A stretch of 35,105 bases of DNA from Halocafeteria seosinensis (taxonomy: Eukaryota > Sar > Bigyra > Bicosoecida), in NCBI GenBank assembly GCA_001687465.1, contig LVLI01000087.1, positions 1 through 35,105 on the forward strand. The letters are read 5' to 3'. Numbering within the stretch: position 1 is the stretch's first letter; each line of letters begins with the position of its first letter. Shown here one piece after another: positions 10,671-28,723 of this stretch. The notes below the pieces were generated by a model that saw only the letters and a program-made list of their open reading frames with translations, had not been told where the DNA came from and did not search any database. The position numbers and the translations under genes were made by a program.

Positions 10671-10693
10671 TATATTATACAATATATAATATA
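10671..10693 (-). promoter_or_regulatory. Start-site dyad of polB
   Basis: TATATTAT and ATAATATA are 8-bp complementary arms with a 7-nt spacer. The arm touches the PolB ATG, which supports 10670 as the true start. Confidence 0.5.
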
Positions 10694-10756
10694 AAATTCT
10701 TTAATAGTAACTTATTATGATTATAGAGAGTTATCAATCTTTTCTTCGTCTTTAAT

Positions 10757-10891
10757 TCAGTTCTTAAATTGGCTTGCCACTTGACCTATTTTATGAACAG
10801 TGTTTAGCGCGCCTCCAACTTTCTTTACAGTATTGCTTAGATTTCCGTTACTTGTTGGTTTTTGTGGGAGAAACTTTTGATGAAGACTCAT
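10757..10891 (-). CDS. 44-residue peptide, possible amphipathic virion peptide
   Basis: A short frame starting MSLHQKFLPQKP and ending in a Gly/Val/Lys-rich helix-like stretch (TVKKVGGALNTVHKIGQV). Its start resembles the first residues of the lipase-like protein at 13410-14231 (MSLKKIGG). It lies alone between polB and the divergent penton gene. Small amphipathic, membrane-active peptides are known in adenovirus (protein VI) and proposed in adintoviruses. That role here is inference from size and composition only. Confidence 0.5.
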   Translation of the reverse strand: MSLHQKFLPQKPTSNGNLSNTVKKVGGALNTVHKIGQVASQFKN

Positions 10892-10930
10892 TTTATCTAT
10901 ATTTAGTCATTAATTTTTGAAAAATAAACT

Positions 10931-10957
10931 ATTAATATATAAGCAAAATATATTAAT
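10931..10957 (+). promoter_or_regulatory. Start-site dyad of the penton-like gene
   Basis: ATTAATATA / TATATTAAT: 9-bp perfect arms, 9-nt spacer, ending at the base before the ATG. It lies in a divergent intergenic region where no gene ends, so it cannot be a 3' signal. Confidence 0.6.
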
Positions 10958-11788
10958 ATGTCCCGCGCTTCTGAATCCAATAAAGTACGATTGTTAGTAA
11001 ATAGCGAACTAGATAGAAGACCTGAAGACTCTCGCGACAATTTTAAAGTTTTCTTGTCCGAACCCTTGGAGCACCACCGCAATACCATCAAAATGGCATT
11101 ACGAAAAATTTCAGTGCCGAATTTGGCGTATACCTTCCATAAAAATGAATCTACCCTATATTACATTACCGATGTTGGAGGTGGGAGCGAAACTTTAAAA
11201 TCAATCGTTATTGACACTGGACGAAAGTTTAATTCTATTTCTGATTTATCAGACCACTTGGAGAATTTGTTTAACAATAATGGAGATAGTATATTAGTAG
11301 ATGTAGACCAAGACACTGATAAGTTAGAAATAACCAACGATACCAGTAGTGATATTCGTATTGTTTCAGGTTTTATATATGAAACTAATGTTCTAAATAC
11401 CCAACTTACCGATCACGCCAATTCTAAGCTTGGATTTCATCAGGATTTAACAAACGAGGTTTTATCTCCCTCAGAGTCGGTTATTGGTTCAGGAATCCCT
11501 AAATTAATCTCAACCGTTGTCTATCACATAGCCTCTACTCAGCTTATGTCAAATAGAATCACGAGAACACCTAACCCTAACACAAAACCCCACGTTTTGG
11601 CGACACTTTTGAACACAGTTTCCTTCGGTGATATTAATGCGGTTAGACTAGGAGAATCAGAGTTGTTTATACTTGAATACGAGAATTCCATTGATAGTTT
11701 TGATATAAAAATTTTAGACGACCAATTCCGAGAAGTTAGCCTAAATGGTGGCGAGATTAATTTAGAATTCGAGTTGTGGTGGTCATAA
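10958..11788 (+). CDS. Penton-like minor capsid protein (candidate)
   Basis: 276 residues. The N-terminal pattern, with F-K-V-F-L-S-E-P-L (about residue 31) then a basic stretch and K-M-A-L-R-K-I-S-V-P-N-L (about 46), matches the start of Polinton/virophage penton proteins, where a strand pair is followed by a W/M-x-V-A-L-x-x-I-x-x-P segment. The length is also that expected of a single-jelly-roll penton. It ends in a beta-rich segment, FELWWS. It would form the capsid vertices. It is the only plus-strand gene in the left half and diverges from the 44-residue peptide gene. Fold assignment rests on pattern and length, not on a search. Confidence 0.7.
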   Translation: MSRASESNKVRLLVNSELDRRPEDSRDNFKVFLSEPLEHHRNTIKMALRKISVPNLAYTFHKNESTLYYITDVGGGSETLKSIVIDTGRKFNSISDLSDHLENLFNNNGDSILVDVDQDTDKLEITNDTSSDIRIVSGFIYETNVLNTQLTDHANSKLGFHQDLTNEVLSPSESVIGSGIPKLISTVVYHIASTQLMSNRITRTPNPNTKPHVLATLLNTVSFGDINAVRLGESELFILEYENSIDSFDIKILDDQFREVSLNGGEINLEFELWWS

Positions 11789-11811
11789 AAAATTAGAGTT
11801 TGATACAACTT

Positions 11812-11840
11812 TTTAAAGAATATTTAAAATAATCTTTAAA
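11812..11840. terminator. Dyad between convergent genes
   Basis: TTTAAAGA / TCTTTAAA, 8-bp arms, between the stop of the penton-like gene and the stop of the minus-strand gene at 11842. A bidirectional 3'-end signal is plausible, as in giant viruses that end transcripts at palindromes. This is inference. Confidence 0.4.
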
Positions 11841-11841
11841 T

Positions 11842-12270
11842 TTAGTCACTCACGTACTGACTCTCATCAATTTCCTCCACATTTTCTAGGTTAGAGTCAT
11901 CCAAGATTTCAGAACTTTTAATTTTTTCTCCTTCTAGCTTATTTGGGTCTTCAATATTTTTAAGACCATAAAGACAATAACGAATTATATCCTTTTTTTC
12001 TCCCTCTTCCATTTGTTTAAAGAGATACCCTAAATAGTCTTGTTTATTTTGTTTCAACCAGCGGAAAGAATAACCTTTATGTTTCCCATACGTAATTTTC
12101 CTGAAATCAATGTCATAGAACCGACGGAAGAATTCTTTGAATAACTCAAGGTTTTGAATTTTAAAATTATCATCGGCTTTAGTTAGGAGGAAATAGATAT
12201 AATTAGGNTTAGTGTTAATGACTTTATCAACGGTATCGTTTGAATGTTTTTGACCAATGTTAATTTTCAT
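11842..12270 (-). CDS. Small protein with exodeoxyribonuclease X C-terminal-like segment
   Basis: 142 residues. The central KITYGKHKGYSFRWL ... YLGYLFKQ has the form FGKHKG-x(n)-YL-x-W-x that defines the ExoX C-terminal-like or DUF3820 module, often found in phage and viral proteins and thought to bind nucleic acid. There is no accompanying exonuclease catalytic domain (no DEDD residues). The C-terminus is acidic. One residue is ambiguous (n at 12208). A 6-bp dyad overlaps the ATG. It is part of the minus-strand block downstream of the lipase-like gene; a role in replication or repair is only a guess. Confidence 0.75.
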   Translation of the reverse strand: MKINIGQKHSNDTVDKVINTXPNYIYFLLTKADDNFKIQNLELFKEFFRRFYDIDFRKITYGKHKGYSFRWLKQNKQDYLGYLFKQMEEGEKKDIIRYCLYGLKNIEDPNKLEGEKIKSSEILDDSNLENVEEIDESQYVSD

Positions 12271-12334
12271 TATTTTTGATATAATAATAAGAGTTTAATT
12301 TTCTCTAAGCTGAAAATTAAACGATTATGAATAA

Positions 12335-12826
12335 TTATGACATAAAATAGTTTAAGGGATTAACGTTATTGTCTTTTAAATTTTTTTCATTTATTAGTTC
12401 TCGTTGAATTTCTTCACGAATTGAGGAAATAGTATCACCGAAACTATCAATTATTTTACGAACTTTTTTATTTTCTAGAGTTTCTTTTTTACTTGTAAAA
12501 TGCGTAAAAAGACCTTGAGGAGTAAAATAGCAAATAGAAGGGAAGTTAGGTTCAAAAAATAATTGAATATCACCTAAGAAACTAATAAAATTATTTATAC
12601 TCATTTCTTCAATCTCTTTTTCAGGTTTTCTTATTTCCTCTATTTTTTCACTCCATTCTTCTAAATGATCTTCAGAGTGAAACTGATAAGCAAATATTAA
12701 TAAATTTTTGATATAGTGTGGTGGGTTGAAGACTATAATATTATATTCTTGACTATAAACGAAACCAGCGTTCATTAAAAGTTTATCTATGATTTTTTCG
12801 CTTTGTTTAATCTCTTTGTTATTCAT
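12335..12826 (-). CDS. Hypothetical protein, 163 residues
   Basis: The frame is open from an ATG whose first base is the last base of an 11-bp-arm dyad, which marks it as a real gene of this element. The protein is acidic and mostly helical in appearance, with aromatic-rich patches (YNIIVFNPPHYIKNLLIFAY, about residues 27-46). No motif, signal peptide or membrane segment is recognised. It lies between the zinc-finger pair and the ExoX-C-like gene on the same strand. Confidence 0.75.
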   Translation of the reverse strand: MNNKEIKQSEKIIDKLLMNAGFVYSQEYNIIVFNPPHYIKNLLIFAYQFHSEDHLEEWSEKIEEIRKPEKEIEEMSINNFISFLGDIQLFFEPNFPSICYFTPQGLFTHFTSKKETLENKKVRKIIDSFGDTISSIREEIQRELINEKNLKDNNVNPLNYFMS

Positions 12827-12854
12827 TTTTTCTATAATTAATCTATAGAAAAAA
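12826..12854 (-). promoter_or_regulatory. Start-site dyad of the 163-residue gene
   Basis: TTTTTTCTATA / TATAGAAAAAA, 11-bp perfect arms. The outer base coincides with the A of the minus-strand ATG. A near-identical copy lies at 13106-13132. Confidence 0.65.
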
Positions 12855-12877
12855 AATTCTTTAACTCAAACTTTTAT

Positions 12878-13054
12878 TTACTTTAGGGTTGTCTTAGTAT
12901 ATTTCCTAATTACACCTGATAAATGCGGATGCCTCAATCGTATATGTCTTGTGATAGATTTAGGGTGAAGAGCCTTGTTACAAAATTGACAATTACTTTT
13001 GGGTGTTGCTTGTTTAGCTTCTACTCTTTCTAATTCTTCTTTTGAACCACTCAT
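12878..13054 (-). CDS. C2H2-type zinc-finger protein, 58 residues (tandem copy 1)
   Basis: A short frame from the ATG at 13054. It carries C-x2-C (CQFCNK) followed by a basic HIRLRHPH stretch, a single C2H2-like finger also seen in small viral DNA-binding proteins. It is clearly homologous to the neighbouring gene at 13151-13345 along its whole length, differing at scattered residues. Upstream it shares the sequence ACTATATATTATA and an AAGCTCT-type word with that neighbour. It is probably a regulator of transcription or replication (inference). It is too short for most automatic gene callers. Confidence 0.75.
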   Translation of the reverse strand: MSGSKEELERVEAKQATPKSNCQFCNKALHPKSITRHIRLRHPHLSGVIRKYTKTTLK

Positions 13055-13105
13055 TTCTTTCTATAATATATAGTAACTAAAAAGCTCTAAGTAAAAAATC
13101 TATGA

Positions 13106-13132
13106 TTTTTCTATAATTAATCTATAGAAAAA
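13106..13132. promoter_or_regulatory. Dyad between the two zinc-finger genes
   Basis: TTTTTCTATA / TATAGAAAAA, 10-bp arms. It is the duplicate of the dyad at 12826, now 52 nt upstream of one zinc-finger start and 19 nt beyond the other gene's stop. Confidence 0.5.
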
Positions 13133-13150
13133 ATTCTTAAACTCAAACTT

Positions 13151-13345
13151 TTAATTGATTTTAGTTAAATCTTTTAGGACTGTATTTGCATATTTCCTGA
13201 TTGCGTCAGATAAATGAGGATGCTTCATTCTAATATGTCTTGCAATAGATTTAGGGTGAAGAGATTTATTACAGAATTGACAATTTGTTTTTGGTGCTTC
13301 TTGTTTAGCTTCTTGTCTTTCTAATTCTTCTTTACTTCCAGACAT
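13151..13345 (-). CDS. C2H2-type zinc-finger protein, 64 residues (tandem copy 2)
   Basis: Paralogue of the preceding gene, with a charged N-terminus, then CQFCNKSLHPKSIARHIR and a KHPH motif forming one C2H2-like finger, and a short basic tail. Its promoter region TTACTATATATTATA is the same as that of copy 1 apart from the last few bases. It lies 64 bp downstream of the lipase-like gene on the same strand. A DNA-binding role is likely from the motif; the target is unknown. Confidence 0.8.
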   Translation of the reverse strand: MSGSKEELERQEAKQEAPKTNCQFCNKSLHPKSIARHIRMKHPHLSDAIRKYANTVLKDLTKIN

Positions 13346-13409
13346 TTTATTTATAATATATAGTAACTAAAAAGCTCTAAGTAACAAATTTAACGATTTA
13401 TGTTAATTA

Positions 13410-14231: not shown

Positions 14232-14242
14232 TTGTCTATATA

Positions 14243-14275
14243 ATAGATGGTTTCTTTAAAAAAGAAACCATCTAT
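14243..14275. terminator. 15-bp perfect hairpin between the P/Q-rich and lipase-like genes
   Basis: ATAGATGGTTTCTTT and its exact complement, separated by AAA. It lies 24 nt beyond the P/Q-rich stop and 12 nt before the lipase-like start, both on the minus strand. It is the longest perfect hairpin in the element. It is probably a transcript-end or processing signal, by analogy with palindrome-dependent 3' ends in giant viruses. Confidence 0.6.
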
Positions 14276-14299
14276 ACAACTTCAAAGAAAATTTATTTC

Positions 14300-15829: not shown

Positions 15830-15857
15830 ATTTTCTTGTATAGAGTTATAAGAAAAT
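15830..15857 (+). promoter_or_regulatory. Start-site dyad of the first HNH gene
   Basis: ATTTTCTT / AAGAAAAT, 8-bp arms. The right arm runs into the first two bases of the ATG at 15856. Confidence 0.55.
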
Positions 15858-16368
15858 GAATAACTCTAATGTTAGAAACTGGAAACGAGTTAAGGACTAT
15901 GAACAGTATTTAGTCAGTGATGACGGGCTGGTTTTTTCGATGAAATATCAAAAATATATGAAACAAAGAATACAAAATGATAACTATCATACAATTGGTT
16001 TAAGAAAACAAGGGAAACAAAAACAATTTTTTATTTCTCGCCTTGTTTTCTGTACGTTGAACGAATTTGATTATTTTGATAAATCTTTTCAGATAGATCA
16101 TATCAATCGTGATAAATCAGATAATTGTTTAGAAAATTTAAGAAAAGTTTCACGATCTCAGAACAAATTAAACACTAATTTGTATAAGAATAATACCACA
16201 AACTTTAAAGGAATTACTTGGTGTAAAAAACACAATAAATGGGTCGTTCGTCTTACGGTTTCTGAAGGTAACCAAAAATCTTTTGGTTATTTTAAGAATT
16301 TGGAAGACGCAGTTATTAAACGTGACCAAGTCCTTAAAGAAACACGAGATGGAATTAACTACATTTAG
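15856..16368 (+). CDS. NUMOD4-HNH homing-type endonuclease
   Basis: 170 residues. An N-terminal NUMOD4 module (WKRVKDYEQYLVSDDGLVFS) is followed by an HNH_3 core (QIDHINRDKSDNCLENLR, about residues 73-91) with the DH and N residues of the metal site, then an AP2-like DNA-binding end (FKGITWCKKHNKWVVRL ... SFGYF). This is the standard layout of free-standing homing endonucleases in phages and large DNA viruses. It would cut DNA lacking the gene and promote its own spread. It lies just before the capsid gene. A second gene of the same layout is at 21600. Confidence 0.92.
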   Translation: MNNSNVRNWKRVKDYEQYLVSDDGLVFSMKYQKYMKQRIQNDNYHTIGLRKQGKQKQFFISRLVFCTLNEFDYFDKSFQIDHINRDKSDNCLENLRKVSRSQNKLNTNLYKNNTTNFKGITWCKKHNKWVVRLTVSEGNQKSFGYFKNLEDAVIKRDQVLKETRDGINYI

Positions 16369-16374: not shown

Positions 16375-16400
16375 ATAATTACTTTCAAAAAAGTAATTAT
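16375..16400 (+). terminator. 11-bp hairpin after the HNH stop
   Basis: ATAATTACTTT / AAAGTAATTAT with a CAAA loop, six bases after the stop codon. A separate start-site dyad of the next gene follows, so this one is best read as a 3' signal. Confidence 0.5.
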
Positions 16401-16436: not shown

Positions 16437-17912
16437 ATGGCACAAAATCCAGAACAGACAGATAGCGTACAGAACGCCAGAGCACCTCCGGCAACTATAT
16501 CTAGAACTCCAAATCAACTGTCAGATACTTCTCAAAACTTCTACTTCGATCCTAAGCTATGTCAGGAAAACTTCCAGATTTTAGATGATATTAATTCACG
16601 CGAAACAATTAGGACAGTTCCGCAAGCTGGTCGTGGACCTTATAAAGAGGGAGACGAAGTTTTGTTTAATTTACAATCTTCAGCTTCTCTTCTGGATCGT
16701 CAACAGACAAACATTAGGATGAAGATAAGAAATACAAGTAACTTGGATGGAGATGATAATCCATCATACGTTCTTTCAGATGGTGCTAATGTTCTTTTGG
16801 ATAATATGGAGCTGGAGTTAGGTGACCAAGTGGCAGAAAAAATTGAAGATGGAGCACGATATTTTCAACATTTAATTTTAGGGACTGTCAATCAAGGATG
16901 GTACGACCACGAAGCAAACGCACTAATGAGGAGTTGGAAATACCGAAGCTTTGCTAATAAATATGAAGTAAGGGTAGATGGTAACAGTGGTAATTGGAAA
17001 AATTTAGTTGGAAATGTTACTGTCGATGCTGATAAAAAATTAGAATTACGTGACCGTGATTTATTCCAATTTTCAGCAGATGAAATAGAATCAAACCCAC
17101 CCGGTAAATCTTTTTGGGTTATTGTTCACCCTGATAACTTAAGTTATTTCCGAGGTTCACGATTTGCTCCTCTATTTGTCAATAACACATTAAGAATTAA
17201 ACTACCCGAGGCTAAAAAGATTATGGAACCAAATTTAAACGCAAGTACAAGTGGAAACCCTAGCTATCAAATTGACAGTATTGAATTAATGGCTGAGCAC
17301 GTCTTCCCCTCATCAGAGCTTCTAAACAGTGTTCACGAAAGAATTTGTCGTTCTCCCTCTGGTTTAAGTATGGTTCTACCCAATTCTGCAGACTTATACC
17401 GAAGAGAATTAGGAAATCAAACACAACATAATATCACTATTTCGGCTAGTTATTCCAATATTCAAGGATTAGTTATGATGGTTTTCGACAAAGACATTGG
17501 TGAAAGCGTGGATAATATTGGGGAATGTCCTCTTCCTTCTTTAGAAAGTTATACTGTTTCTATCCAGACTCACGAACTGGGAACACGTGGTGGAGTCTTC
17601 ACCCTCCCCGAAGCCTATGCTAATTATAGAAAACACTATAACTTCTTATCTGATGTTTCTGGGCAAGGAATGTTAGACTATGAACGTTTTCAATTTAATC
17701 ATACTATTATGGCTGTTAACACTGATTTGCTTCCACACGCTCCACCTGAAGTTCTACAGAATAGCCTTTCAACCAATGATCGAGGGTCTCAGATTAATAT
17801 TGAACTGAATAATTCAGTTGCTGGAGAAACAAATAATAAACGACTGTATATTTGGGTAATCCACAAAAGAATCGCTCATTTAAGTAACGGAATGTCAAAA
17901 ATTGGAATCTAG
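16437..17912 (+). CDS. Major capsid protein (double jelly-roll, candidate)
   Basis: 491 residues, in the size range of Polinton major capsid proteins. It is beta-rich, without membrane segments or low complexity after the first 35 residues. An early stretch on binding and order (DGANVLLDNMELELGDQ), a mid-protein NTLRIKLPEAKK and a late strand-rich part ending LYIWVIHKRIAHLSNG fit a two-barrel capsid protein. It is encoded two genes before the packaging ATPase, the usual neighbourhood. No other protein in the element is a better candidate. The assignment comes from size, composition and position, so profile or structure comparison would be decisive. The gene is followed at 17954 by a copy of the structured repeat. 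Confidence 0.75.
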   Translation: MAQNPEQTDSVQNARAPPATISRTPNQLSDTSQNFYFDPKLCQENFQILDDINSRETIRTVPQAGRGPYKEGDEVLFNLQSSASLLDRQQTNIRMKIRNTSNLDGDDNPSYVLSDGANVLLDNMELELGDQVAEKIEDGARYFQHLILGTVNQGWYDHEANALMRSWKYRSFANKYEVRVDGNSGNWKNLVGNVTVDADKKLELRDRDLFQFSADEIESNPPGKSFWVIVHPDNLSYFRGSRFAPLFVNNTLRIKLPEAKKIMEPNLNASTSGNPSYQIDSIELMAEHVFPSSELLNSVHERICRSPSGLSMVLPNSADLYRRELGNQTQHNITISASYSNIQGLVMMVFDKDIGESVDNIGECPLPSLESYTVSIQTHELGTRGGVFTLPEAYANYRKHYNFLSDVSGQGMLDYERFQFNHTIMAVNTDLLPHAPPEVLQNSLSTNDRGSQINIELNNSVAGETNNKRLYIWVIHKRIAHLSNGMSKIGI

Positions 17913-17953: not shown

Positions 17954-18029
17954 AGCTCAATGACGCCTCGGTCATTGTAGCGTCAGACTACAAGCTTAAA
18001 ACCACGCAAAGGCTACAAGCGAGATTAAT
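17954..18029 (+). ncRNA. Structured intergenic repeat, copy A
   Basis: About 75 nt, beginning AGCTCAATGACGCCTCGG and ending GCTACAAGCGAGATTAAT. AATGAC/GTCATT pairs around a GCCTCG loop, TTGTAG/CTACAA forms a second hairpin, and AGCT/AGCT can close both. The loop CTCG is complementary to the downstream CGAG. Nearly identical to copies B and C. It could be a transcript-end element, a stable small RNA or a recombination site. Confidence 0.75.
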
Positions 18030-18036: not shown

Positions 18037-18063
18037 ATTTATCTTTACATTATAAAGATAAAT
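18037..18063 (+). promoter_or_regulatory. Start-site dyad of the coiled-coil protein gene
   Basis: ATTTATCTTTA / TAAAGATAAAT, 11-bp perfect arms with a 5-nt loop. The right arm includes the AT of the ATG at 18062. Confidence 0.65.
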
Positions 18064-19560: not shown

Positions 19561-19636
19561 AGCTCAATGACGCCTCGGTCATTGTAGCGTCAGACTACAA
19601 GCTTAAAACCTCGCAATAGCTACAAGCGAGATTAAT
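19561..19636 (+). ncRNA. Structured intergenic repeat, copy B
   Basis: Begins two nucleotides after the stop codon of the coiled-coil gene and differs from copy A by a few bases in its second half (CCTCGCAATAGC instead of CCACGCAAAGGC). All the pairings listed for copy A are kept, including the 5-bp AAGCT/AGCTT closing stem. Confidence 0.75.
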
Positions 19637-19653
19637 TTACCTTTTAAATTAAT
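19631..19653 (+). promoter_or_regulatory. Dyad upstream of the ATPase gene
   Basis: ATTAATTTA / TAAATTAAT, 9-bp arms, overlapping the end of repeat B and 22 nt before the ATG. It is farther from its start codon than the other dyads, so it may belong to the repeat. Confidence 0.4.
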
Positions 19654-19675
19654 CTATAGAATATAAGTAGATAAT

Positions 19676-20518
19676 ATGCCTTTAGAATTTGATTTGTTTT
19701 CAGGAAAACAAGGTGAAGTCCAAGAAGAGAAGAAGATTCCGGAAGAACTTCATTTCCCCTTTCGTTTTTGTATCGTAGGAAGTACCGGCACGGGTAAAAC
19801 CAACCTAATTAAAAATTTCATTTATAAACATTATAAAGATGTCTTGGACAAAGTTTTCTATTTCTCCGCCAAAACCAAAACCTTGAATCAAATTAAAGAA
19901 CAGCACGAGAAATCAAGCCCTAGTTTTGATTTGGAATTGTTTAGGAGTTTTGACGACTCTAGAGTGAAGCAATTGGTCGACCAAGAAGATGAGGCTGACA
20001 ACTCAGCGTTGTTTGTCTTTGATGATATGTTAAGCAAGAATGTCCTGAGTAAACAAAAGAACAATAGTATTGACCAGATTCTTCAAAATGGACGAGAAGC
20101 CGGTATGTCGGCTATAATTTCAGCTCAACGTTACGCAGATTTAAACCCAAATGCCAGAAGGGACAACTGCTCAGCTCTGATTCTTCTTGAGAGTCTTGGA
20201 GATAGTGAGATAAAACGTATCGTGGATGAGCAAAAAATCAACGTGACAAAAGAGAAACTAAAAAAATTAATGTCTGAACACACTGGAGGTGAAGACCATA
20301 AATTTTTGGTTATAGATTTCACGGAGCCAATCCAAGAAAGATTTAAAGATTCTACATTTGAAAAAATAGACTTGAATGAGGATAATCACGAAGTCATCAG
20401 AGGGAAAAAACCTAGAGAATTCAAAAATAAAGCTAAAGTAAAGAGAAAAAGCAAATGTCTGATAAAGAAGATGGTAAAAAATCATCCCGTAAATCCTGCG
20501 GAAAAAATATTGAATTAA
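19676..20518 (+). CDS. A32-like (FtsK/HerA) genome-packaging ATPase
   Basis: 280 residues. Walker A GSTGTGKT at residues 35-42 and Walker B ALFVFDD at 111-117, followed by a polar SAQR sensor-like segment (about 158) and a basic C-terminus. Layout and length match the packaging ATPases of Polintons, virophages and nucleocytoviruses, which pump the genome into the procapsid. It is preceded by repeat B. Its last 64 nt overlap the next small frame starting at 20455 in a different phase, suggesting coupled expression. Confidence 0.95.
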   Translation: MPLEFDLFSGKQGEVQEEKKIPEELHFPFRFCIVGSTGTGKTNLIKNFIYKHYKDVLDKVFYFSAKTKTLNQIKEQHEKSSPSFDLELFRSFDDSRVKQLVDQEDEADNSALFVFDDMLSKNVLSKQKNNSIDQILQNGREAGMSAIISAQRYADLNPNARRDNCSALILLESLGDSEIKRIVDEQKINVTKEKLKKLMSEHTGGEDHKFLVIDFTEPIQERFKDSTFEKIDLNEDNHEVIRGKKPREFKNKAKVKRKSKCLIKKMVKNHPVNPAEKILN

Positions 20519-20893: not shown

Positions 20894-20920
20894 TTTTCTA
20901 TAATTATTTAATATAGAAAA
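20894..20920 (+). promoter_or_regulatory. Start-site dyad of the VLTF3-like gene
   Basis: TTTTCTATA / TATAGAAAA, 9-bp perfect arms and 9-nt spacer, one base before the ATG at 20922. The TCTA core recalls late promoters of CroV/Mavirus. Confidence 0.6.
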
Positions 20921-20921: not shown

Positions 20922-21551
20922 ATGACTTGTATCAATTGTGAGTCTGGTAATCTTGATTGGGTAGGGTATGAAATGATTTGCTGTAATTGCGGTTCTGTTC
21001 AACCAGATAATTATATAATTGAATTAGAAGAACTACCAAGTCTCTCACCCTCGCCGATTGAGCGGGCTATCGATTTTATCTCAACTCACAACTTTAGCAA
21101 ATATCTGAAAAGCTTAAGTGGAATTGAGACCAAGAACATTTCCGATAAATTTTTGGATGAGGTCAACGAATTCTTGTTTAGAAATAATCTAGATACTAAC
21201 CACGAAAACATCCTTAAATTTTTAAAAAGCAAACGATTATATTCGTTATATTCACATACTTCTGTCATTCATCATAAATTGACGGGGGAACCACAATACT
21301 ATATCCCTCCAGAGTTACGGGATGAATTAGTTGGAATGTTCAAGCGGATAGAAATTATTTGGGGTTATGTCAGACCTAGAAACCGGATTTATTTACCAAA
21401 TTATAGCTTTTTCTTAAGAAAGATGCTCTTCTTGAAAAATTACGACGATCTGGCTTATAAATTTACATCCGTCAGTTACAAGTCAGCTAAGAAAGTTAAA
21501 GAAACTGAGGATATTTGGTTACGAATTTGTCAAGAATTGAACTGGAGTTAA
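20922..21551 (+). CDS. VLTF3-like late transcription factor
   Basis: 209 residues. An N-terminal zinc ribbon (C3-x2-C6 and C20-x2-C23) precedes a helical domain. YYIPPELRDELVGMFKRIE then a W and a P-R-N-R-I-Y-L-P-N-Y-S-F-F-L-R-K stretch (about residues 120-165) match the R-x-x-x-P-N-Y-x-F-x-L-x-K pattern of poxvirus late transcription factor 3 homologues. The C-terminal KETEDIWLRICQELNW corresponds to their D-x-x-W-x-x-I-C-x-x-L-x-W ending. In large DNA viruses this protein acts in late-gene transcription in infected-cell factories. Its presence implies element-specific late promoters. It follows the ATPase and the interrupted gene. Confidence 0.85.
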   Translation: MTCINCESGNLDWVGYEMICCNCGSVQPDNYIIELEELPSLSPSPIERAIDFISTHNFSKYLKSLSGIETKNISDKFLDEVNEFLFRNNLDTNHENILKFLKSKRLYSLYSHTSVIHHKLTGEPQYYIPPELRDELVGMFKRIEIIWGYVRPRNRIYLPNYSFFLRKMLFLKNYDDLAYKFTSVSYKSAKKVKETEDIWLRICQELNWS

Positions 21552-21574: not shown

Positions 21575-21601
21575 ATTTTATATTTGTATACAATATAAAA
21601 T
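21575..21601 (+). promoter_or_regulatory. Start-site dyad of the second HNH gene
   Basis: ATTTTATATT / AATATAAAAT, 10-bp perfect arms and 7-nt spacer. The right arm includes AT of the ATG at 21600. The arm sequence differs from neighbouring dyads but stays complementary. Confidence 0.6.
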
Positions 21602-22127
21602 GGATGTTATCTATGAACAACAAGAATACTTTAAAACTATTCCTCACTTTCCTGAGTATCAAGTTTCTACTTATGGTAGAGTTTATAGTACAAAATCAGG
21701 TAGAATGTTAACACTTGGAAATAATCGTGGTTATTTTGAAGTTAAGTTTCACTATTCTGGAAAAAATTATATTAGAGGGGTACATCGTCTAGTTGGACAA
21801 ACTTTTTATGGACTTGAAAAATTGGAAGGAAAGCAAATTGATCACAAAAACAATATTAGAAATGATAATCGTCTATCAAACTTGCGAATTTGTACTAGAC
21901 CGGAAAATTTATATAATACTGGAAAGAGAAGTGATAATTCTTCTGGCTACAAAGGAGTAGGATACCGAAAAGGACGTAAATATCAGAAAAACCCTTGGCA
22001 CGCAAGAATAATTTTTAATGGTAAAAGACATATTCTAGGTTATTTTCCAACTGCTGAACGAGCCTATGAAGCTTATAAGGAAAAAGCTAAAGAAGTTCAC
22101 GGAGAATTTTATCACTATAATGATTAG
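21600..22127 (+). CDS. NUMOD4-HNH-AP2 homing-type endonuclease
   Basis: 175 residues. NUMOD4 (FPEYQVSTYGRVYSTKSGR, about residues 18-36), HNH core (QIDHKNNIRNDNRLSNLR, about 80-97) and a C-terminal AP2-like module (SGYKGVGYRKG ... WHARI ... LGYFPTAERAYEAY). Same layout as the gene at 15856 but clearly diverged, so not a recent duplicate. It sits between the late transcription factor and the fibre gene block. Expected activity is site-specific DNA cutting that favours its own inheritance. Confidence 0.93.
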   Translation: MDVIYEQQEYFKTIPHFPEYQVSTYGRVYSTKSGRMLTLGNNRGYFEVKFHYSGKNYIRGVHRLVGQTFYGLEKLEGKQIDHKNNIRNDNRLSNLRICTRPENLYNTGKRSDNSSGYKGVGYRKGRKYQKNPWHARIIFNGKRHILGYFPTAERAYEAYKEKAKEVHGEFYHYND

Positions 22128-22133
22128 TTAAAA

Positions 22134-22160
22134 ATTTATCTTTTAACTATAAAGATAAAT
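22134..22160 (+). promoter_or_regulatory. Start-site dyad of fibre gene 1
   Basis: ATTTATCTTT / AAAGATAAAT, 10-bp arms, one base before the ATG at 22162. The arms match those of the dyad at 18037, so these two genes may be co-regulated. Confidence 0.6.
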
Positions 22161-22161: not shown

Positions 22162-23964
22162 ATGAGTGGAACAATACGATTACATCACCAAACATCTGGT
22201 GGCTTGGCTGGGACAACAAAGGTTCACAAAGGGCTTAACGTAAGTAACGGAAGATTAAGTGTAGATTCTGGTTCCGGTCTTGCTTTTAACAATGACAATA
22301 AACTCGTTAATGAATGGTATAATGTTTCAGACGGTTCTAACCTTGATATGAACTCTAACCGAATCACTAATTTGGCAAATCCAACCGGTTCAGGTGATGC
22401 TACTACTAAGAGTTATATTGATAATCAAGTTAGCGTTCCTCAGCTAAGGAAAGGTGCTAGAGCCTACTATAGTTTTGATGATAGTAGTGAGCCTTATGCT
22501 GATTCAGTGGGACAATATGATGGACGAGCAGTAGGTGGAATAACTATTACAAACAGCGGGAAAATTGGAAGTGCTGTTGAATTTGATGGAAATCAATCTT
22601 ATGTTGAACTCCCAAACAATGCGTTTGACGTAGCAGGAAGCGACTTTTCCTTTTCCTTTTGGGCTTATGTAAAACTTACAAGTTCAGCTCAAATTCTTAT
22701 GGTTAGTCAAACGGATCAAGACAACAGATTGTTAATTACACAAGAAAGCGGTGATTATATCCGAATATTTACTAGTTCAGGAGGGACAGAGAAAGAAGTT
22801 CAATCGTCAACTTTATCAGGAAATACGTGGTATCATTTTGTTATCGTTGGACAAGGTACAACAGGTACAATTTATGTAAACGGAACACAAGACGCAACGG
22901 GAACAATATTTAATGATGCTACAATGACTGGTTCTACTTCGTTGGTTGGTATTGATAATCAAAACGCATTGTCCAACGGCTACCGCATAGATAAATTCGG
23001 TTTGTGGAATCGTGTTTTAACTGGAGATGAAATTGATTTTCTATATAATGGAGGAAATGGAACAAATAATTGGCAAGATACCTATTTAGCCACCAAGGGT
23101 GAAGTCACACAATTACGTCAATATACCAACGCATTGGCGGGACTTCCACAACTGAGACGTTCAGCGAGAGCCTATTATAGTTTTGATGGAAATGACCCTT
23201 ATGCTGATTCGTTTGGGACATATGATGGAACAAATAATGGGGTGAGTCAGAGCAATACAGCCAAAATTGGAAAATCTATTGAATTTAGCGCAGATGGTCA
23301 ATATGTAGACATCGGTCAAGCTCTAAAATTTGGAACGGGAGACTTTGCTGTTAGTTGTTGGTTTTATCCAACACAAACATCCAGCAGTAGCCACGACATA
23401 ATGTGGGGAACTGATGAAACAGGAGATGGCTTTAGGGCATTTGGTCTTTTTAATGATGATCAAACAATTGAATTCTTTACAACAGATGGTTCGACGGCAA
23501 AAAAAGTCATTACAAACACAACTGTAGCCCTAAATACGTGGCATTTTATTACGATGACACGTTCGGGTGGAACAGGTCAGATATATATTAACGGTTCGCT
23601 AGAAACGTTCGGAACAGTACGTAGCGATAATATTGCAAGTTCAGATATTACTTATATTGGAATCCCGGGCTCAAGTCATTCACCCCGTGGATTTATTGAT
23701 GAATTCGGTGCGTGGTCTCGAGTTCTATCGCAAGATGAAATCGTATATCTCTACAATAATGGTAACGGCACGAATGATTTTCAGAGTTTTGATTGGTATT
23801 CTCGTCCCGCACAAAGCAATGTTGATATGAATGGTAATTCAATAACCAATGGACAGGATATCACAACCAAACAACTCTTCCTAACCAATCTTCCGACGAG
23901 TGACCCTCTAGTTGCTGGTCAAGTTTGGAATAACAGTGGAGTATTGAACATTTCAAGCGGTTAA
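22162..23964 (+). CDS. Fibre-like protein with two LamG/concanavalin-type domains
   Basis: 600 residues. Near the N-terminus is a phage tail-fibre-type repeat (LDMNSNRITNLANPTGSGDA plus TKSYID, about residues 59-85). Two related lectin-like domains follow (about 95-300 and 330-540), each starting ARAYYSFD and containing a S-x-E-F strand, a F-x-x-S-x-W-x-Y/F strand, W-x-H/F and an I-Y-x-N-G-x motif, then ending in a F-G-x-W-x-R-V-L segment, the pattern of LamG_3 jelly rolls. Another N-M-N-G-x-x-I-T-x-G repeat lies near the end. It is probably a host-binding spike (inference). It is the first of three fibre-like genes in a row. Confidence 0.88.
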   Translation: MSGTIRLHHQTSGGLAGTTKVHKGLNVSNGRLSVDSGSGLAFNNDNKLVNEWYNVSDGSNLDMNSNRITNLANPTGSGDATTKSYIDNQVSVPQLRKGARAYYSFDDSSEPYADSVGQYDGRAVGGITITNSGKIGSAVEFDGNQSYVELPNNAFDVAGSDFSFSFWAYVKLTSSAQILMVSQTDQDNRLLITQESGDYIRIFTSSGGTEKEVQSSTLSGNTWYHFVIVGQGTTGTIYVNGTQDATGTIFNDATMTGSTSLVGIDNQNALSNGYRIDKFGLWNRVLTGDEIDFLYNGGNGTNNWQDTYLATKGEVTQLRQYTNALAGLPQLRRSARAYYSFDGNDPYADSFGTYDGTNNGVSQSNTAKIGKSIEFSADGQYVDIGQALKFGTGDFAVSCWFYPTQTSSSSHDIMWGTDETGDGFRAFGLFNDDQTIEFFTTDGSTAKKVITNTTVALNTWHFITMTRSGGTGQIYINGSLETFGTVRSDNIASSDITYIGIPGSSHSPRGFIDEFGAWSRVLSQDEIVYLYNNGNGTNDFQSFDWYSRPAQSNVDMNGNSITNGQDITTKQLFLTNLPTSDPLVAGQVWNNSGVLNISSG

Positions 23965-25600: not shown

Positions 25601-25601
25601 A

Positions 25602-25675
25602 AGCTCAATGACGCCTCGGTCATTGTAGCGTCAGACTACAAGCTTAAAACCACGAAAAGCTACAAGCGAGATTAA
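25602..25675 (+). ncRNA. Structured intergenic repeat, copy C
   Basis: Begins right after the stop of fibre 2 and is almost identical to copies A and B in its first 50 nt. It keeps both hairpins, the AAGCT/AGCTT closing stem and CTCG/CGAG complementarity. Confidence 0.75.
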
Positions 25676-25682
25676 GCATTTT

Positions 25683-25715
25683 TTCTTTATAAAAGAAAGC
25701 ATCTATTATAAAGAA
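25683..25715 (+). promoter_or_regulatory. Start-site dyad of fibre gene 3
   Basis: TTCTTTATAA / TTATAAAGAA, 10-bp perfect arms, 13-nt spacer. The last base is the A of the ATG. Confidence 0.6.
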
Positions 25716-27253
25716 TGTCATATATTTCAAGTAACGTTTCATCTAATATTAGTCTAGGTAGAAAAGGTTATATTTTTGAGCTTGAAGATGAAGATGTTCA
25801 TCCTCCAGAAGAATGGTATAAACATCCCGCTGGGGAGAATATAGATTTAGCTGGAAATCGTTTAATAAATTTAAGCACAGCTAGTTTAGGTGATGAAGCT
25901 GTCACATTAAATTATCTTCAGAGTAATTTCGACACCGATTTAAATTTAGAAGAAAAATTTCTTCAGTTGGACGGAAATAATAGCTTAAACGCTAATCTTG
26001 ATATGAATTCAAACAAAATCCTTAATTTAGGTAATCCGGTTGATTCCGGAGATGGGGTTAATCTGGGTTATTTACAGAGCAATTACTATACATCGTCAAC
26101 CGTTGACAGTGATTTTCTACAGGTTAGCGGGGGTAATTCTATGAGTAGTAGTCTTGATTTGAGTTCGAACAAGGTTGTCAACCTAGCTACTCCAGTTGAT
26201 TCTGGAGATGGGATTAATCTAGACTATTTGACGGTTAATTATTATTCCTCTACGGGTGCTGATAATCGGTTCCTTCGGGTTGATGGAACGAATCCAATGG
26301 AAAATAACTTAAATTTGAATTCTAATAAGATTACTGGTTTAGCTAATCCAATTGATTCTGTGGATGGGGTGAGTCTAAATTATTTGGAAAACAACTACTA
26401 CTCTTCCACTGAGGCAGATAATCAATTCATTCAAGTTGACGGGGCTAATGCTATGAACAATAATTTAGATTTAGCAAATAATAGAATCGTTGATTTAGCA
26501 GATCCAACAGACTTAAACGATATAGCCACAAAAAATTATCTAGAGGCTGATTTTGTTAATTTGTCGGGGGATACAATGGCAAATAATTTAATTTTAGGTG
26601 GGAATAGAATTACGAGTGTGTCCGGTTCCTCAGACCTAGCTACTTTAGACTATGGAAATCTAACTTTTCCTCGGTTGGATGGGACAAATACTTTTGGAGC
26701 TAACCTTTCAGTCGGTGATAATAAAATCGTCAATTTGGGTAATGCTAGTAATGACAGAGATTTAGTTAATCTGGAGACGTTCAACAATCAAACAACAAGT
26801 TTTCCACGAGAAATTTCTCACTTCAGTTTTGAAGAAACGGATGTAACCATAAACAACGGCACCACATACGATTCATCTGTTACTAAAACCTTGTCTAAAA
26901 ATACAGATTATTTAGTATTTGTTCGCATATTTTCAGTTGGTGTAAATTCGGGCGTTAGTAGCGAATTTTATATGTTACATAAAATTAATGGTAATTCAAC
27001 TGACCCGTGGAGTTTTACAGGGGCTTATAAAGGAATCGATCTTTCAAAAAAAGCCACTTCCTATTTTGAAAGCGCTAGCGGAATTCATTTCACAGGGTAT
27101 TACTACACAACCCTAAGCGTTGGAACAAGCAATAACGTTTCTTTCAATCTTCAAATTGTCAACGATTCCGGAAGTAATCAAACAATTAATAGGATAACTC
27201 AAAATATTCATCTGCTAAAAATTGACGGGGTTGAAGAAATTTCATTAGCTTAA
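25715..27253 (+). CDS. Fibre-like protein 3 with seven tail-fibre-type repeats
   Basis: 512 residues, the same plan as fibre 2: a shared N-terminal segment (YIFELEDEDVHPPEEWYKHP), seven repeats from about residue 43 to 355 of the L-D-x-x-S-N-K-I-x-N-L type, then a different C-terminal head of about 150 residues with several aromatic beta strands. One repeat region is nearly identical at DNA level to fibre 2 (see findings). Different heads on similar shafts suggest distinct receptor specificities in one particle, or a reservoir for switching (inference). Confidence 0.88.
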   Translation: MSYISSNVSSNISLGRKGYIFELEDEDVHPPEEWYKHPAGENIDLAGNRLINLSTASLGDEAVTLNYLQSNFDTDLNLEEKFLQLDGNNSLNANLDMNSNKILNLGNPVDSGDGVNLGYLQSNYYTSSTVDSDFLQVSGGNSMSSSLDLSSNKVVNLATPVDSGDGINLDYLTVNYYSSTGADNRFLRVDGTNPMENNLNLNSNKITGLANPIDSVDGVSLNYLENNYYSSTEADNQFIQVDGANAMNNNLDLANNRIVDLADPTDLNDIATKNYLEADFVNLSGDTMANNLILGGNRITSVSGSSDLATLDYGNLTFPRLDGTNTFGANLSVGDNKIVNLGNASNDRDLVNLETFNNQTTSFPREISHFSFEETDVTINNGTTYDSSVTKTLSKNTDYLVFVRIFSVGVNSGVSSEFYMLHKINGNSTDPWSFTGAYKGIDLSKKATSYFESASGIHFTGYYYTTLSVGTSNNVSFNLQIVNDSGSNQTINRITQNIHLLKIDGVEEISLA

Positions 27254-27276
27254 ATTTTTCTTAAAATATAAAAGAA

Positions 27277-27435
27277 ATGTTAGAAATAATTATAGGTGTG
27301 ATTTCATTCGTGGGAGGTAGTGTTAGTGGTGTAGTCGCAAAGCTCATAAGGGACAAGCTATTAAAGTCAGATTGTGAGTTAAATGTTGGAATCCATAGCG
27401 GAGAGCGTGAAGAAGAAGAAACAAATAATAATTAG
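27277..27435 (+). CDS. 52-residue single-pass membrane protein
   Basis: The frame starts MLEIIIGVISFVGGSVSGVV, a hydrophobic segment with small residues, then a basic stretch (KLIRDKLLK) and an acidic tail ending EEEETNNN. It resembles small phage or viral membrane proteins such as holin-like or virion membrane peptides, but is not assignable. It is supported by a 6-bp dyad (TTTCTT/AAGAAA) that ends at its ATG. It was too short for the supplied frame list. Confidence 0.6.
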   Translation: MLEIIIGVISFVGGSVSGVVAKLIRDKLLKSDCELNVGIHSGEREEEETNNN

Positions 27436-27493
27436 TTAAAATTATTTAAATTTGGTATTAGAAATTATAGTATTATATAATATTATAATAAAA

Positions 27494-28021
27494 ATGCCAA
27501 AACTTCCAAAAGATTTTTCAAAATCTGTCATTTACAAATTATGTTGTTTAGACCCCGAAGTTAAAGAGGTTTATGTGGGAAGCACAACTAATTTTAAACA
27601 AAGAAAAAGTCTACATAAAAGTCGTTGTACAAATCCTAATGTTAATGGTTATAATTGTTTTGTTTATGAATTTATTCGTGAAAACGGTGGTTGGGAAAAC
27701 TGGCAAATGATTATGGTTGAGAATTACCCGTGTGAATCAAAACTAGAATTGGAAAAAAGAGAACGTGAAATTATAGAAGAGTTAGAAGCTAGTTTGAATA
27801 AAAGAATTCCTACTAGAACTAAGGAAGAATATTATGAAGAATATTATGAAAAAAATTTTGATTATTTAAAACAACAACGTAAAGAATATTATGAAAAAAA
27901 TTTTGATTATTTAAAACAACAAAAATCAGAAAAAATTCAGTGTGAATATTGTGGAAAATATCATAGAAAAGATAATAAATTAAGACATCAAAGAAGTCAA
28001 AAATGTAAGAAACACCAATAA
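27494..28021 (+). CDS. GIY-YIG endonuclease with C-terminal zinc finger
   Basis: The start is taken at the ATG at 27494, since the longer frame begins with TTG. About 175 residues. SVIYKLCCLD ... EVYVGSTTNFKQRKSLHK is a GIY-YIG variant (YKL ... YVG) with the downstream Arg (RK) and a Glu-bearing LELEKREREIIEEL helix, the layout common in nucleocytovirus and Polinton nucleases. Residues about 115-145 hold two copies of YYEKNFDYLKQQ. The end has CEYCGKYHRKDNKLRH, a C2H2-like finger for DNA binding. Probably another mobile nuclease. Confidence 0.9.
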   Translation: MPKLPKDFSKSVIYKLCCLDPEVKEVYVGSTTNFKQRKSLHKSRCTNPNVNGYNCFVYEFIRENGGWENWQMIMVENYPCESKLELEKREREIIEELEASLNKRIPTRTKEEYYEEYYEKNFDYLKQQRKEYYEKNFDYLKQQKSEKIQCEYCGKYHRKDNKLRHQRSQKCKKHQ

Positions 28022-28037
28022 TTTTTTAGCTTAAAAC

Positions 28038-28066
28038 TTTTTCTATATCATTTTAATATAGAAAAA
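28038..28066 (+). promoter_or_regulatory. Start-site dyad
   Basis: TTTTTCTATA / TATAGAAAAA, 10-bp perfect arms and 9-nt spacer, ending at the base before the ATG at 28067. Confidence 0.65.
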
Positions 28067-28303
28067 ATGGAACAAGTAGAGCAAAAAATTTTAGAACTGG
28101 AAGAATTAATGAAGGAACANTTCCAGCACGATTTTTATAATTTGGAGTTCGCGGACTTTCAAGTATATGATCGTGTAAATGATCGTTTGTGGCAAACGTG
28201 GTCTAGCCTTGATAATATCAGGTTTATGATAGACCGCTATCAAGATTTTCATAATGTAATTAGTCAAAATGAGCTACCGACCACAGAACGTTTGGAATGT
28301 TAA
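28067..28303 (+). CDS. Hypothetical protein, 78 residues
   Basis: Acidic, probably all-helical, with no recognised motif. Codon 18 contains an ambiguous base. The strong dyad abutting its ATG and the tight packing between neighbours support it as a real gene of the element. Confidence 0.65.
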   Translation: MEQVEQKILELEELMKEXFQHDFYNLEFADFQVYDRVNDRLWQTWSSLDNIRFMIDRYQDFHNVISQNELPTTERLEC

Positions 28304-28326
28304 TAAAAAATTTGACTTAAAGAATT

Positions 28327-28352
28327 TTTTTCTATAGAATAATATAGAAAAA
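28327..28352 (+). promoter_or_regulatory. Start-site dyad
   Basis: TTTTTCTATA / TATAGAAAAA with a 6-nt loop. The last base is the A of the ATG at 28352. Same arm sequence as at 28038. Confidence 0.65.
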
Positions 28353-28681
28353 TGAAAGTAATAGGATGTGTTTCTATACACCGTACTAACTACACTATAA
28401 ACATAAAAACAACCTATAACGAGGGTTGTATAAAAACTGTAGACGTTCCAGTACCTCATAGTTTTGGAGTTCAAAGAACTGAAGAAAAACGAGAAAAATG
28501 GCAAAAATTTCGTAAAGAAAAGTTAGATCAATATGTAACAGATATTAAAAACGATATTTATTTTCAATTTTTAAATGAAGACGATAAACCAACAATTGAT
28601 AAACTTGAAATTGAAAATTTTTTATCACGAGAAATTGAACTTGATTCACCTTTAAAAGAAATAGCTGAGTTTAAAAATTAA
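28352..28681 (+). CDS. Hypothetical protein, 109 residues
   Basis: It starts with a beta-like segment (MKVIGCVSIHRTNYTINIKT) followed by charged helices and an acidic end. There is no membrane segment or recognised motif. It is co-directional with its neighbours. It ends 39 bp before the tRNA gene, in a stretch with several ambiguous bases. Confidence 0.65.
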   Translation: MKVIGCVSIHRTNYTINIKTTYNEGCIKTVDVPVPHSFGVQRTEEKREKWQKFRKEKLDQYVTDIKNDIYFQFLNEDDKPTIDKLEIENFLSREIELDSPLKEIAEFKN

Positions 28682-28695
28682 TTNTTTNTTATNGN

Positions 28696-28723
28696 GCTCT
28701 ATTAATTATTCAGTTAATAGAGC
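28696..28723 (+). promoter_or_regulatory. Dyad at the 5' end of the tRNA gene
   Basis: GCTCTATTAA / TTAATAGAGC, 10-bp perfect arms and 8-nt spacer. The right arm overlaps the first three bases of the tRNA. It has the same placement as the dyads at protein-gene starts, or it may end the preceding transcript. Confidence 0.55.

What the first reader, a model, noticed from the sequence alone, without database searches (positions are those of the whole stretch)
10671..28723. Dyad-symmetric sequences ending exactly at start codons across the element, with covarying arms
At least a dozen genes have perfect inverted repeats of 8-11 bp arms (spacers 5-13 nt) whose right arm ends within 0-2 bases of, or inside, the ATG: 10671, 10931, 12826, 15830, 18037, 20894, 21575, 22134, 25683, 28038, 28327, plus one at the tRNA (28696). 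Weaker ones (6 bp) occur at 12270, 16412 and 27257. The arm sequence changes between genes (TTTTCTATA, ATTTATCTTT, TTCTTTATAA, ATTTTATATT, ATTAATATA) but complementarity is kept, which argues for selection on symmetry or on an RNA hairpin rather than a fixed word. One case (10931) is in a divergent region where it cannot be a transcript end. It could be a promoter for a dimeric factor, a 5'-leader hairpin, or a shared end/start signal. TCTA in several left arms recalls CroV/Mavirus late promoters.
Basis: partly seen in the sequence, partly recalled or inferred. Interest (0 to 1): 0.85.

Follow-up and report, generated by a model that had tools for sequence, protein, structure and literature searches.

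The report
Hairpin signals at viral gene starts
A virus-like element sitting in what looks like a single-celled eukaryote's genome places a small hairpin directly against the start codon of nearly half of its genes; the letters of the two arms differ from gene to gene yet still pair, which suggests a punctuation mark read partly by shape, as in giant viruses.

Summary
The window carries an endogenous polinton-like virus of about 24.6 kb (4.7-29.3 kb) with TIRs, rve+chromodomain integrase, A32-type ATPase, VLTF3-like factor and fibre genes. Of 25 non-overlapping ORFs, 10 have a perfect dyad of 9-11 bp whose outer end falls at the ATG (shuffles: mean 0.16, max 2). Arms match within a gene far more than between genes (permutation p=1e-5), with six arm words. 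Related elements in the same 30.6-Mb genome carry dyads at orthologous starts, some with co-changed arms; others have lost them. TATA begins at -17..-6 in 24 of 25 ORFs, and the published Megamimivirinae late-promoter pattern hits 8 of 25 (chance 0.75). Tandem boundaries tend to hold one hairpin, at the ATG or separately after the stop (0 of 13 versus 12 of 35, p=0.02), though shortage of room weakens this. Best reading: giant-virus-type punctuation, the 3' arm being the next gene's late promoter and the 5' arm completing a 3'-end hairpin. Dyads at divergent starts do not fit a pure terminator. No transcript data were on hand. New variant of a known kind.

The parts
4708..4873 (.). left terminal inverted repeat arm
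   Evidence: 84% complementary to 29149-29314, ungapped; 4702-4873, 92%; further matches on C276, C56, C436, C120
29149..29314 (.). right terminal inverted repeat arm
5509..6495 (-). integrase with rve core and chromodomain; no ATG dyad, only ATATAGAAAAATG
6513..10670 (-). 1385-aa protein with an endonuclease VII-like patch (Pfam 22.7 bits, just under the 23.6 cut-off)
10670..10694 (-). ATG dyad TTATATTATA/TATAATATAA, loop 5
10757..10891 (-). 44-aa ORF between the 1385-aa and 276-aa genes; if it is a gene, the 10670 start is tandem, not divergent
10930..10958 (+). ATG dyad TATTAATATAT/ATATATTAATA, loop 7, of the 276-aa gene 10958-11788; divergent start; same arms in C88
12826..12854 (-). ATG dyad TTTTTTCTATA/TATAGAAAAAA, loop 7, of the 163-aa gene 12335-12826
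13106..13132 (-). copy of the same dyad, 18 nt after the stop of the 64-aa gene 13151-13345 and without a start codon directly behind it (next start 51 nt on)
15831..15856 (+). ATG dyad of the NUMOD4/HNH gene 15856-16368: 7 bp perfect, 9 pairs with one G-T
16437..17912 (+). 491-aa protein, presumed major capsid protein by conservation only; no ATG dyad
18037..18063 (+). ATG dyad ATTTATCTTTA/TAAAGATAAAT, loop 5, of the 498-aa gene 18062-19558
19676..20518 (+). A32-type packaging ATPase, 280 aa here against 400 and 402 aa in C367 and C88 (shortened here)
20894..20920 (+). ATG dyad TTTTCTATA/TATAGAAAA, loop 9, of the VLTF3-like gene 20922-21551
21575..21601 (+). ATG dyad ATTTTATATT/AATATAAAAT, loop 7, of the NUMOD4/HNH gene 21600-22127
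22134..22160 (+). ATG dyad ATTTATCTTT/AAAGATAAAT, loop 7, of the LamG fibre gene 22162-23964
22125..22149 (+). hairpin TAGTTAAAA/TTTTAACTA beginning with the stop codon of the upstream gene and interlocked with the dyad 22134-22160
25683..25715 (+). ATG dyad TTCTTTATAA/TTATAAAGAA, loop 13, of the fibre gene 25715-27253
27464..27489 (+). dyad ATTATAGTATT/AATATTATAAT (one G-T), 4 nt before the GIY-YIG gene 27494-28021
28038..28066 (+). ATG dyad TTTTTCTATAT/ATATAGAAAAA, loop 7, of the 78-aa ORF 28067-28303
28327..28352 (+). ATG dyad TTTTTCTATA/TATAGAAAAA, loop 6, of the 109-aa ORF 28352-28681
12293..12322 (-). separate hairpin after a stop codon, 11 bp
14243..14275 (-). separate hairpin after a stop codon, 15 bp
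16375..16400 (+). separate hairpin after a stop codon, 11 bp
19629..19655 (+). separate hairpin between the 498-aa and ATPase genes, 11 bp
28696..28723 (+). 10-bp hairpin about 14 nt after the stop of the 109-aa ORF, overlapping the first bases of tRNA-His (28721-28792)

Best explanation
The dyads are transcription punctuation of the giant-virus type. Shown: 24 of 25 ORFs have TATA close before the ATG, the last bases before the ATG are A-rich, and 12 of 25 have an upstream arm (>=7 bp) that is the exact complement of this stretch. Inferred: the TATA/A-rich stretch (3' arm) is the late promoter or initiation site of the gene; the 5' arm makes it into a hairpin that, in the transcript of the preceding gene, serves as the 3'-end processing signal, as in the mimivirus 'hairpin rule'. 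Only pairing matters for the hairpin, so the arms may drift as long as they drift together; the promoter pins the 3' arm to the ATG. Where a boundary has its own hairpin after the stop, the start codon usually has no dyad. No RNA polymerase, poly(A) polymerase or RNase III was recognised above cut-off in the element's ORFs that I searched, so it may rely on a co-infecting giant virus, perhaps with its own VLTF3-like factor (inference).
For: Dyads at ATG far above shuffles. Arms pair within genes. TATA starting at -17..-6 in 24 of 25 ORFs, shuffle 6.1, max 14; A fraction 0.71 in -6..-1 against 0.40 in -60..-41. Megamimivirinae late pattern from PMC11464507 (passages) with <=1 mismatch: 8 of 25 genes, shuffle 0.75, max 4; seven of the eight hit at -26..-31, five of these being genes with a dyad >=9 bp. 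One hairpin per tandem boundary: with both cut-offs at 9 bp, a separate hairpin at 0 of 13 boundaries with an ATG dyad and at 12 of 35 without, Fisher p=0.021; window alone 0 of 8 versus 6 of 11, p=0.018. The dyad copy 13106-13132 stands after a stop codon with no start codon directly behind it. Orthologous co-change: VLTF3-like gene arms TTTTCTATA/TATAGAAAA (window), TTATTTTCTA/TAGAAAATAA (C429), TTTTATTTT/AAAATAAAA (C294). Mimivirus hairpins are not conserved in sequence and are cut by a viral RNase III-like enzyme (PMC4402537, passages).
Against: Dyads at divergent starts, where no upstream gene is seen to end: 10958 (11 bp, window and C88; P=0.0022 by shuffle) and C289 2167 (10 bp; P=0.0016). 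C429 keeps the latter start but with an unpaired change in the 3' arm (seen by eye). The one-hairpin tendency is not significant for gaps >=60 nt (0 of 4 versus 10 of 20, p=0.11) or for the window alone at looser cut-offs of 7 and 8 bp (1 of 9 versus 6 of 10, p=0.057), so lack of room may explain part of it; rows from C55, C88 and C367 are partly orthologous and not independent. Dyads are absent at some orthologues: the 498-aa gene in C88 and C367; the LamG gene keeps 6 bp in both. The three ATG dyads folded are weak as RNA (-6 to -7.4 kcal/mol), against -18 for the 15-bp separate hairpin. One of 26 ORFs in host-like stretches also has an 11-bp dyad. Transcript ends are not mapped.
Confidence: 0.5

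Rival explanations
1. Promoter dyad: the whole dyad belongs to the downstream gene and works at DNA level (strand opening, cruciform or a symmetric complex on the late promoter), with pairing itself selected. No role for the upstream gene.
For: Dyads at divergent starts; outer ends pinned to the ATG: in six contigs 20 of 33 best stems >=8 bp (offsets -1..29 searched) end at -1..+1; the late-motif pattern overlaps the dyad; upstream conservation between close orthologues is highest next to the ATG, 92% in -12..-1 falling to 70% in -60..-37.
Against: 13 of 25 starts have none >=7 bp, including the presumed capsid gene and the integrase. The dyad copy at 13106-13132 has no start codon directly behind it. 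Separate hairpins are rare at boundaries that have an ATG dyad.
Confidence: 0.28
2. 5' leader hairpin in the mRNA of the downstream gene that affects its translation or stability.
For: The three ATG dyads folded as RNA beat shuffles (z -3.5 to -5.0); two stems reach >=8 pairs only with one G-T pair and none only with one A-C pair.
Against: The G-T count is within chance (2 of 69 ORFs, shuffle mean 0.6, max 3; A-A also gives 2). TATA at -17..-6 and the CTTA[AG]A element at -46..-28 (8 hits, shuffle 0.93, max 5) may mean that transcription starts inside or after the dyad, in which case the hairpin would not be in the mRNA (inference).
Confidence: 0.1
3. Mutational origin: template switching at AT-rich promoters copies the core as an inverted repeat, without function.
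For: Stems are mostly either long and perfect or absent (diagonal); orthologues gain and lose them.
Against: 21 of 23 perfect repeats are in the 11% of the element between ORFs; dyads at orthologous starts in C88, C367, C429 and C294.
Confidence: 0.1

Closest known systems
Late promoters of Megamimivirinae and their virophages
   Same: AT-rich bipartite motif T[AC]T...[AG]TA[TG]A close to the ATG; 8 of 25 genes match with <=1 mismatch (pattern from PMC11464507, passages)
   Different: The passages read describe no pairing of the two halves; 17 of 25 genes do not match
Mavirus/EMALE TCTA promoter motif
   Same: TCTA flanked by AT-rich sequence (PMC8547959, passages); here TCTATA at 4.7 per kb between ORFs against 0.32 in coding DNA
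   Different: Here TCTATA is one of several arm words and is paired with TATAGA; relation to any giant virus was not tested
Mimivirus 'hairpin rule' polyadenylation signals
   Same: Palindromes not conserved in sequence at gene ends (PMC4402537, passages); terminator hairpins also named for virophages and transpovirons (PMC7031253, passages)
   Different: Here many hairpins touch the next start codon, and some stand at divergent starts
Medusavirus palindromic promoter-like motif
   Same: A palindrome upstream of genes (PMC8557863, passages)
   Different: One sequence motif, about 40 to 70 bp upstream, not at the ATG
ASFV-type late promoters with TATA at the initiation region
   Same: TATA close to the start (named in PMC11788076, passages and its reference list)
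   Different: No dyad described in the passages read

Membership tests
Polinton-like virus / virophage-like element | Terminal inverted repeats around an element of 14-40 kb (size from the abstract of PMC12220804 in the listing) | tested here: met
Polinton-like virus / virophage-like element | FtsK/A32-type packaging ATPase | tested here: met
   PF04665 37.3 bits, cut-off 22.8
Polinton-like virus / virophage-like element | rve integrase, with chromodomain in polintons (recalled) | tested here: met
   PF00665 33.5 bits, cut-off 32.6; PF00385 29.7 bits, cut-off 25.1
Polinton-like virus / virophage-like element | Double-jelly-roll major capsid protein | tested here: inconclusive
   491-aa protein with relatives on the other element contigs; no Pfam or PHROG match at the limits used, no PDB match better than E 0.064; single-sequence model useless, pLDDT 29.6
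Polinton (Maverick) | Protein-primed DNA polymerase B | tested here: not met
   No polymerase B family among the 17 element proteins put to Pfam, the 1385-aa one included; the smaller ORFs were not searched there; not filed as a Polinton
Megamimivirinae-type late promoter | Published pattern within 100 nt upstream | tested here: inconclusive
   8 of 25 genes against 0.75 expected; 17 do not match
Mimivirus hairpin-rule 3' ends | Palindrome at each transcript end | tested here: inconclusive
   A stem >=8 bp at 29 of 48 tandem boundaries against 5.5 by shuffle, max 8; transcript ends not mapped
Mimivirus hairpin-rule 3' ends | Cleavage by RNase III-like enzyme and polyadenylation within the hairpin | not testable with these tools
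   needs RNA

The most novel reading that the evidence does not exclude
One hairpin serves two genes: its 3' arm is the promoter of the gene that follows and, in RNA, the whole hairpin ends the transcript of the gene before. Promoter choice then forces its own complement upstream, which makes arms covary from gene to gene. At divergent starts the same paired form would be used as a promoter read by shape.
Probability: 0.35. Interest if true: 0.72.

Novelty: new variant of a known kind. Interest (0 to 1): 0.55.

Why it matters
Giant-virus and virophage late promoters are known as weak AT-rich motifs, and their 3' ends as hairpins of free sequence. If the two are one object in this element, the degeneracy of the late motif would have a simple cause, and covariation would become a way to find promoters and helper-virus dependence in endogenous viruses. 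The published late pattern itself (T[AC]T facing A[TG]A) could be examined for pairing.

Tried and rejected
Relatives in IMG/VR: protein searches with the ATPase and the presumed capsid protein and peptide patterns found no related element; in a tblastn of the ORFs against the 30 contigs only HNH genes matched, on 3 contigs. In the 28 contigs found by the TCTATA/TATAGA pattern the pattern looks like chance: 2 of 281 ORFs have a dyad >=8 bp at the ATG. In the 19 contigs, 1 of 149 ORFs has one: L059 9202-9933, 12 bp, exactly at the ATG; not followed up. No phage record matches the ATPase or the integrase at E<=1.

Pure terminator: rejected as a full account because of divergent starts. Fixed palindromic binding site: rejected because arms of different words do not match each other. 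G-T against A-C test to tell RNA from DNA: too few cases. AAAATTGA early motif: one hit in -46..-28 and two within 100 nt, not the main signal. Capsid model discarded. PF04451 search of the genome found nothing, but its control also rang nowhere, so it says nothing.

Results against: of 26 ORFs in host-like stretches (so called by GC and place, not proven; L003 includes a fragment of a related ATPase), 2 have a dyad >=7 bp and one of these 11 bp, L021 3912. In 78 ORFs of the 42%-GC elements only 4 reach 7 bp, three of them one orthologous gene. A weak match of the 142-aa protein to poxvirus RNA polymerase subunit rpo30_N (15.3 bits, cut-off 25) was not counted as a polymerase. Rows left out: ORFs without 60 nt upstream or with N there; also gaps outside 15-170 nt, among them the 20922 start (apparent gap 403 because the ATPase ORF is shortened). 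One search used a few start positions one to three bases off; the counts come.
Full report
What is there. The window is G000:C55:1-35105, a piece of a 30.6-Mb assembly in 605 contigs, by its size and the tool's notes on exons a eukaryote (inference). It holds a virus-like element of about 24.6 kb between terminal inverted repeats near 4.7 and 29.3 kb. Genes named by Pfam: integrase with rve core and chromodomain, A32-type ATPase, VLTF3-like factor, class 3 lipase-like protein, two NUMOD4/HNH and one GIY-YIG nuclease, a LamG fibre and two phage-tail-fibre-like proteins. The 491-aa product of 16437-17912 is the presumed capsid protein, by conservation only. The ATPase is 280 aa here but 400 and 402 aa in relatives on C367 and C88; it is cut short at 20518. 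The 328-aa gene at 15286 has 391 aa in C88; other orthologues in C88 and C367 agree closely in length for most genes seen, the LamG gene of C367 (772 against 600 aa) excepted. The nearest copies (C367, C88) have ATPase and presumed capsid proteins 81-91% identical to the window's, and C66 holds an 87% ATPase fragment; the other matches, piece by piece, are mostly 32-51% identical. So this is a family of insertions of different ages; nothing seen suggests a use by the host, which was not tested.

The dyads. In 25 non-overlapping ORFs, 10 have a perfect stem of 9-11 bp whose outer end falls at -1..+3 of the ATG, against a shuffle mean of 0.16 and maximum of 2. Over the whole element 21 of 23 perfect repeats of 9 bp or more lie between ORFs, where 0.93 are expected. 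Two more starts have 7-bp perfect stems that extend with a single G-T pair (15856, 27494). The first ATG of each ORF was taken, without choosing starts by their dyads.

Covariation. Taking the upstream arm of one gene and the start-side arm of another, 9 bp is reached in 3.8% of the pairs (largely among genes that share a word), against 10 of 25 for a gene's own arms; 100,000 permutations never gave 10 (max 7). The words are TTTTTCTATA (four genes, plus the copy at 13106-13132), TTTATCTTTA (two), TTCTTTATAA, TTTTATATT, TTATATTATA and TATTAATATAT. In the genome the pattern TTTCTATA-N(3-10)-TATAGAAA was listed at 9 places, all in contigs of this element family (C55 five, C88, C289, C367, C429); seven of them are ATG dyads, the other two being 13106-13132 and a mid-region hairpin of C429.

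Relatives. Upstream of the VLTF3-like gene the arms are TTTTCTATA/TATAGAAAA here, 10 and 12 bp of the same word in C367 and C88, TTATTTTCTA/TAGAAAATAA in C429 and TTTTATTTT/AAAATAAAA in C294: both arms changed together. The lipase-like gene has TTTCTTTAACT/AGTTAAAGAAA and the 498-aa gene CTTTTAGTTA/TAACTAAAAG in C429. In the more GC-rich elements one gene has ATTAAGTGA/TCACTTAAT in three copies and, in a fourth (L010), ATCAAGTGA/TCACTTGAT a little further from the ATG, a paired T-A to C-G change seen by eye; a fifth copy (L008) has its first ATG elsewhere. Against this, the 498-aa gene lacks a dyad in C88 and C367, the LamG gene keeps only 6 bp there, and the fibre gene at 24083 has none in three elements. 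Counts per contig, stems >=9 bp at the ATG, ORFs >=60 aa: C55 10 of 23, C367 1 of 7, C88 2 of 13, C429 3 of 12, C294 1 of 5, C289 1 of 3; in C2, C301, C440, C46 and C443 together 1 of 42; in the GC-rich group 3 of 78; in host-like stretches 1 of 26. The feature is thus strongest in the window's own element.

Promoter signs. TATA begins at -17..-6 in 24 of 25 ORFs (shuffle 6.1, max 14), also where there is no dyad. The exception is the ORF 15737-, which overlaps an opposite-strand ORF; an ORF 78% identical exists in C88, so whether it is a gene is open. The published Megamimivirinae late pattern (PMC11464507 passages) hits 8 of 25 with at most one mismatch (shuffle 0.75, max 4), seven of them at -26..-31. 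A further element CTTA[AG]A lies at -46..-28 (8 hits, shuffle 0.93, max 5), before nuclease genes and ORFs of unknown function. Conservation between close orthologues is 92% in -12..-1 and falls to 70% in -60..-37.

Which gene owns the hairpin? At 48 tandem boundaries of six contigs, 29 have some stem >=8 bp (shuffle 5.5, max 8). A separate hairpin >=9 bp occurs at 0 of 13 boundaries with an ATG dyad >=9 bp and at 12 of 35 without (p=0.021); for the window alone 0 of 8 and 6 of 11 (p=0.018); for gaps >=40 nt 0 of 11 and 12 of 27 (p=0.008); for gaps >=60 nt 0 of 4 and 10 of 20 (p=0.11). At cut-offs of 7 and 8 bp it is 2 of 18 and 13 of 30 (p=0.026), and for the window alone 1 of 9 and 6 of 10 (p=0.057). 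The copy at 13106-13132 stands 18 nt after a stop codon with the next start 51 nt further on. This speaks for a role at the end of the preceding gene. But of 10 starts at divergent boundaries, 4 have a dyad >=7 bp: 10958, its orthologue in C88, 15856, and C289 2167; for 10958 and C289 2167 shuffles reach the observed stem in about 0.2% of trials. A terminator alone cannot explain these. I therefore favour a late promoter core whose complement makes a hairpin used as a 3'-end signal, with the divergent cases as the main unsolved point.

Known and new. Hairpins not conserved in sequence at transcript ends are established in mimiviruses (PMC4402537 passages) and reported for Bodo saltans virus (PMC5871332 passages); terminator hairpins and late promoters are named together for virophages and transpovirons (PMC7031253 passages). 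Late motifs are called degenerate (PMC4402537 passages). In the seven literature searches made here and the passages read I saw no description of covarying dyads at start codons; no paper was read whole, subscription papers were not covered, and the original mimivirus promoter and hairpin papers were not seen.

Noticed in passing
window 17958-17984, 19565-19591, 25606-25632: A repeat of about 75-85 nt (CAATGAC...GTCATTG and following) stands after genes 16437, 18062 and 24083; its 27-nt core is listed at 13 places in the genome, 3 in the window and 4 in C88, others on C50, C76, C85 (two), C526 and C584. Folded once as RNA it is no better than shuffles (z -0.87).
   Followed up: partly
window 29612-29914: A piece of NADH dehydrogenase subunit 1 (NuoH/nad1-like) right of the element, the only match found in the assembly: organelle- or bacterium-like DNA beside the element, or an assembly join.
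   Followed up: partly
window 28721-28792: tRNA-His gene inside the element, preceded by a hairpin that overlaps its first bases.
   Followed up: no
window 12878-13345: Two neighbouring small ORFs (58 and 64 aa) that look like a tandem duplication with a spacing of 291 bp, the dyad copied along.
   Followed up: partly
L059 9202-9933: A 12-bp perfect dyad exactly at an ATG in an AT-rich IMG/VR contig that carries an RNA polymerase motif.
   Followed up: no
L021 3912-5015: An 11-bp GC-rich dyad CAAGGCGTGTA/TACACGCCTTG ending one base before the ATG of a 367-aa ORF in a host-like stretch.
   Followed up: no
C429 11408-11432 (in L004) and the stretch upstream of the ATG dyad 2143-2165 in C289 (L025): The divergent region before the gene beginning MSNEIDFDE holds a second, nested hairpin besides the one at the ATG, seen in both contigs.
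   Followed up: partly
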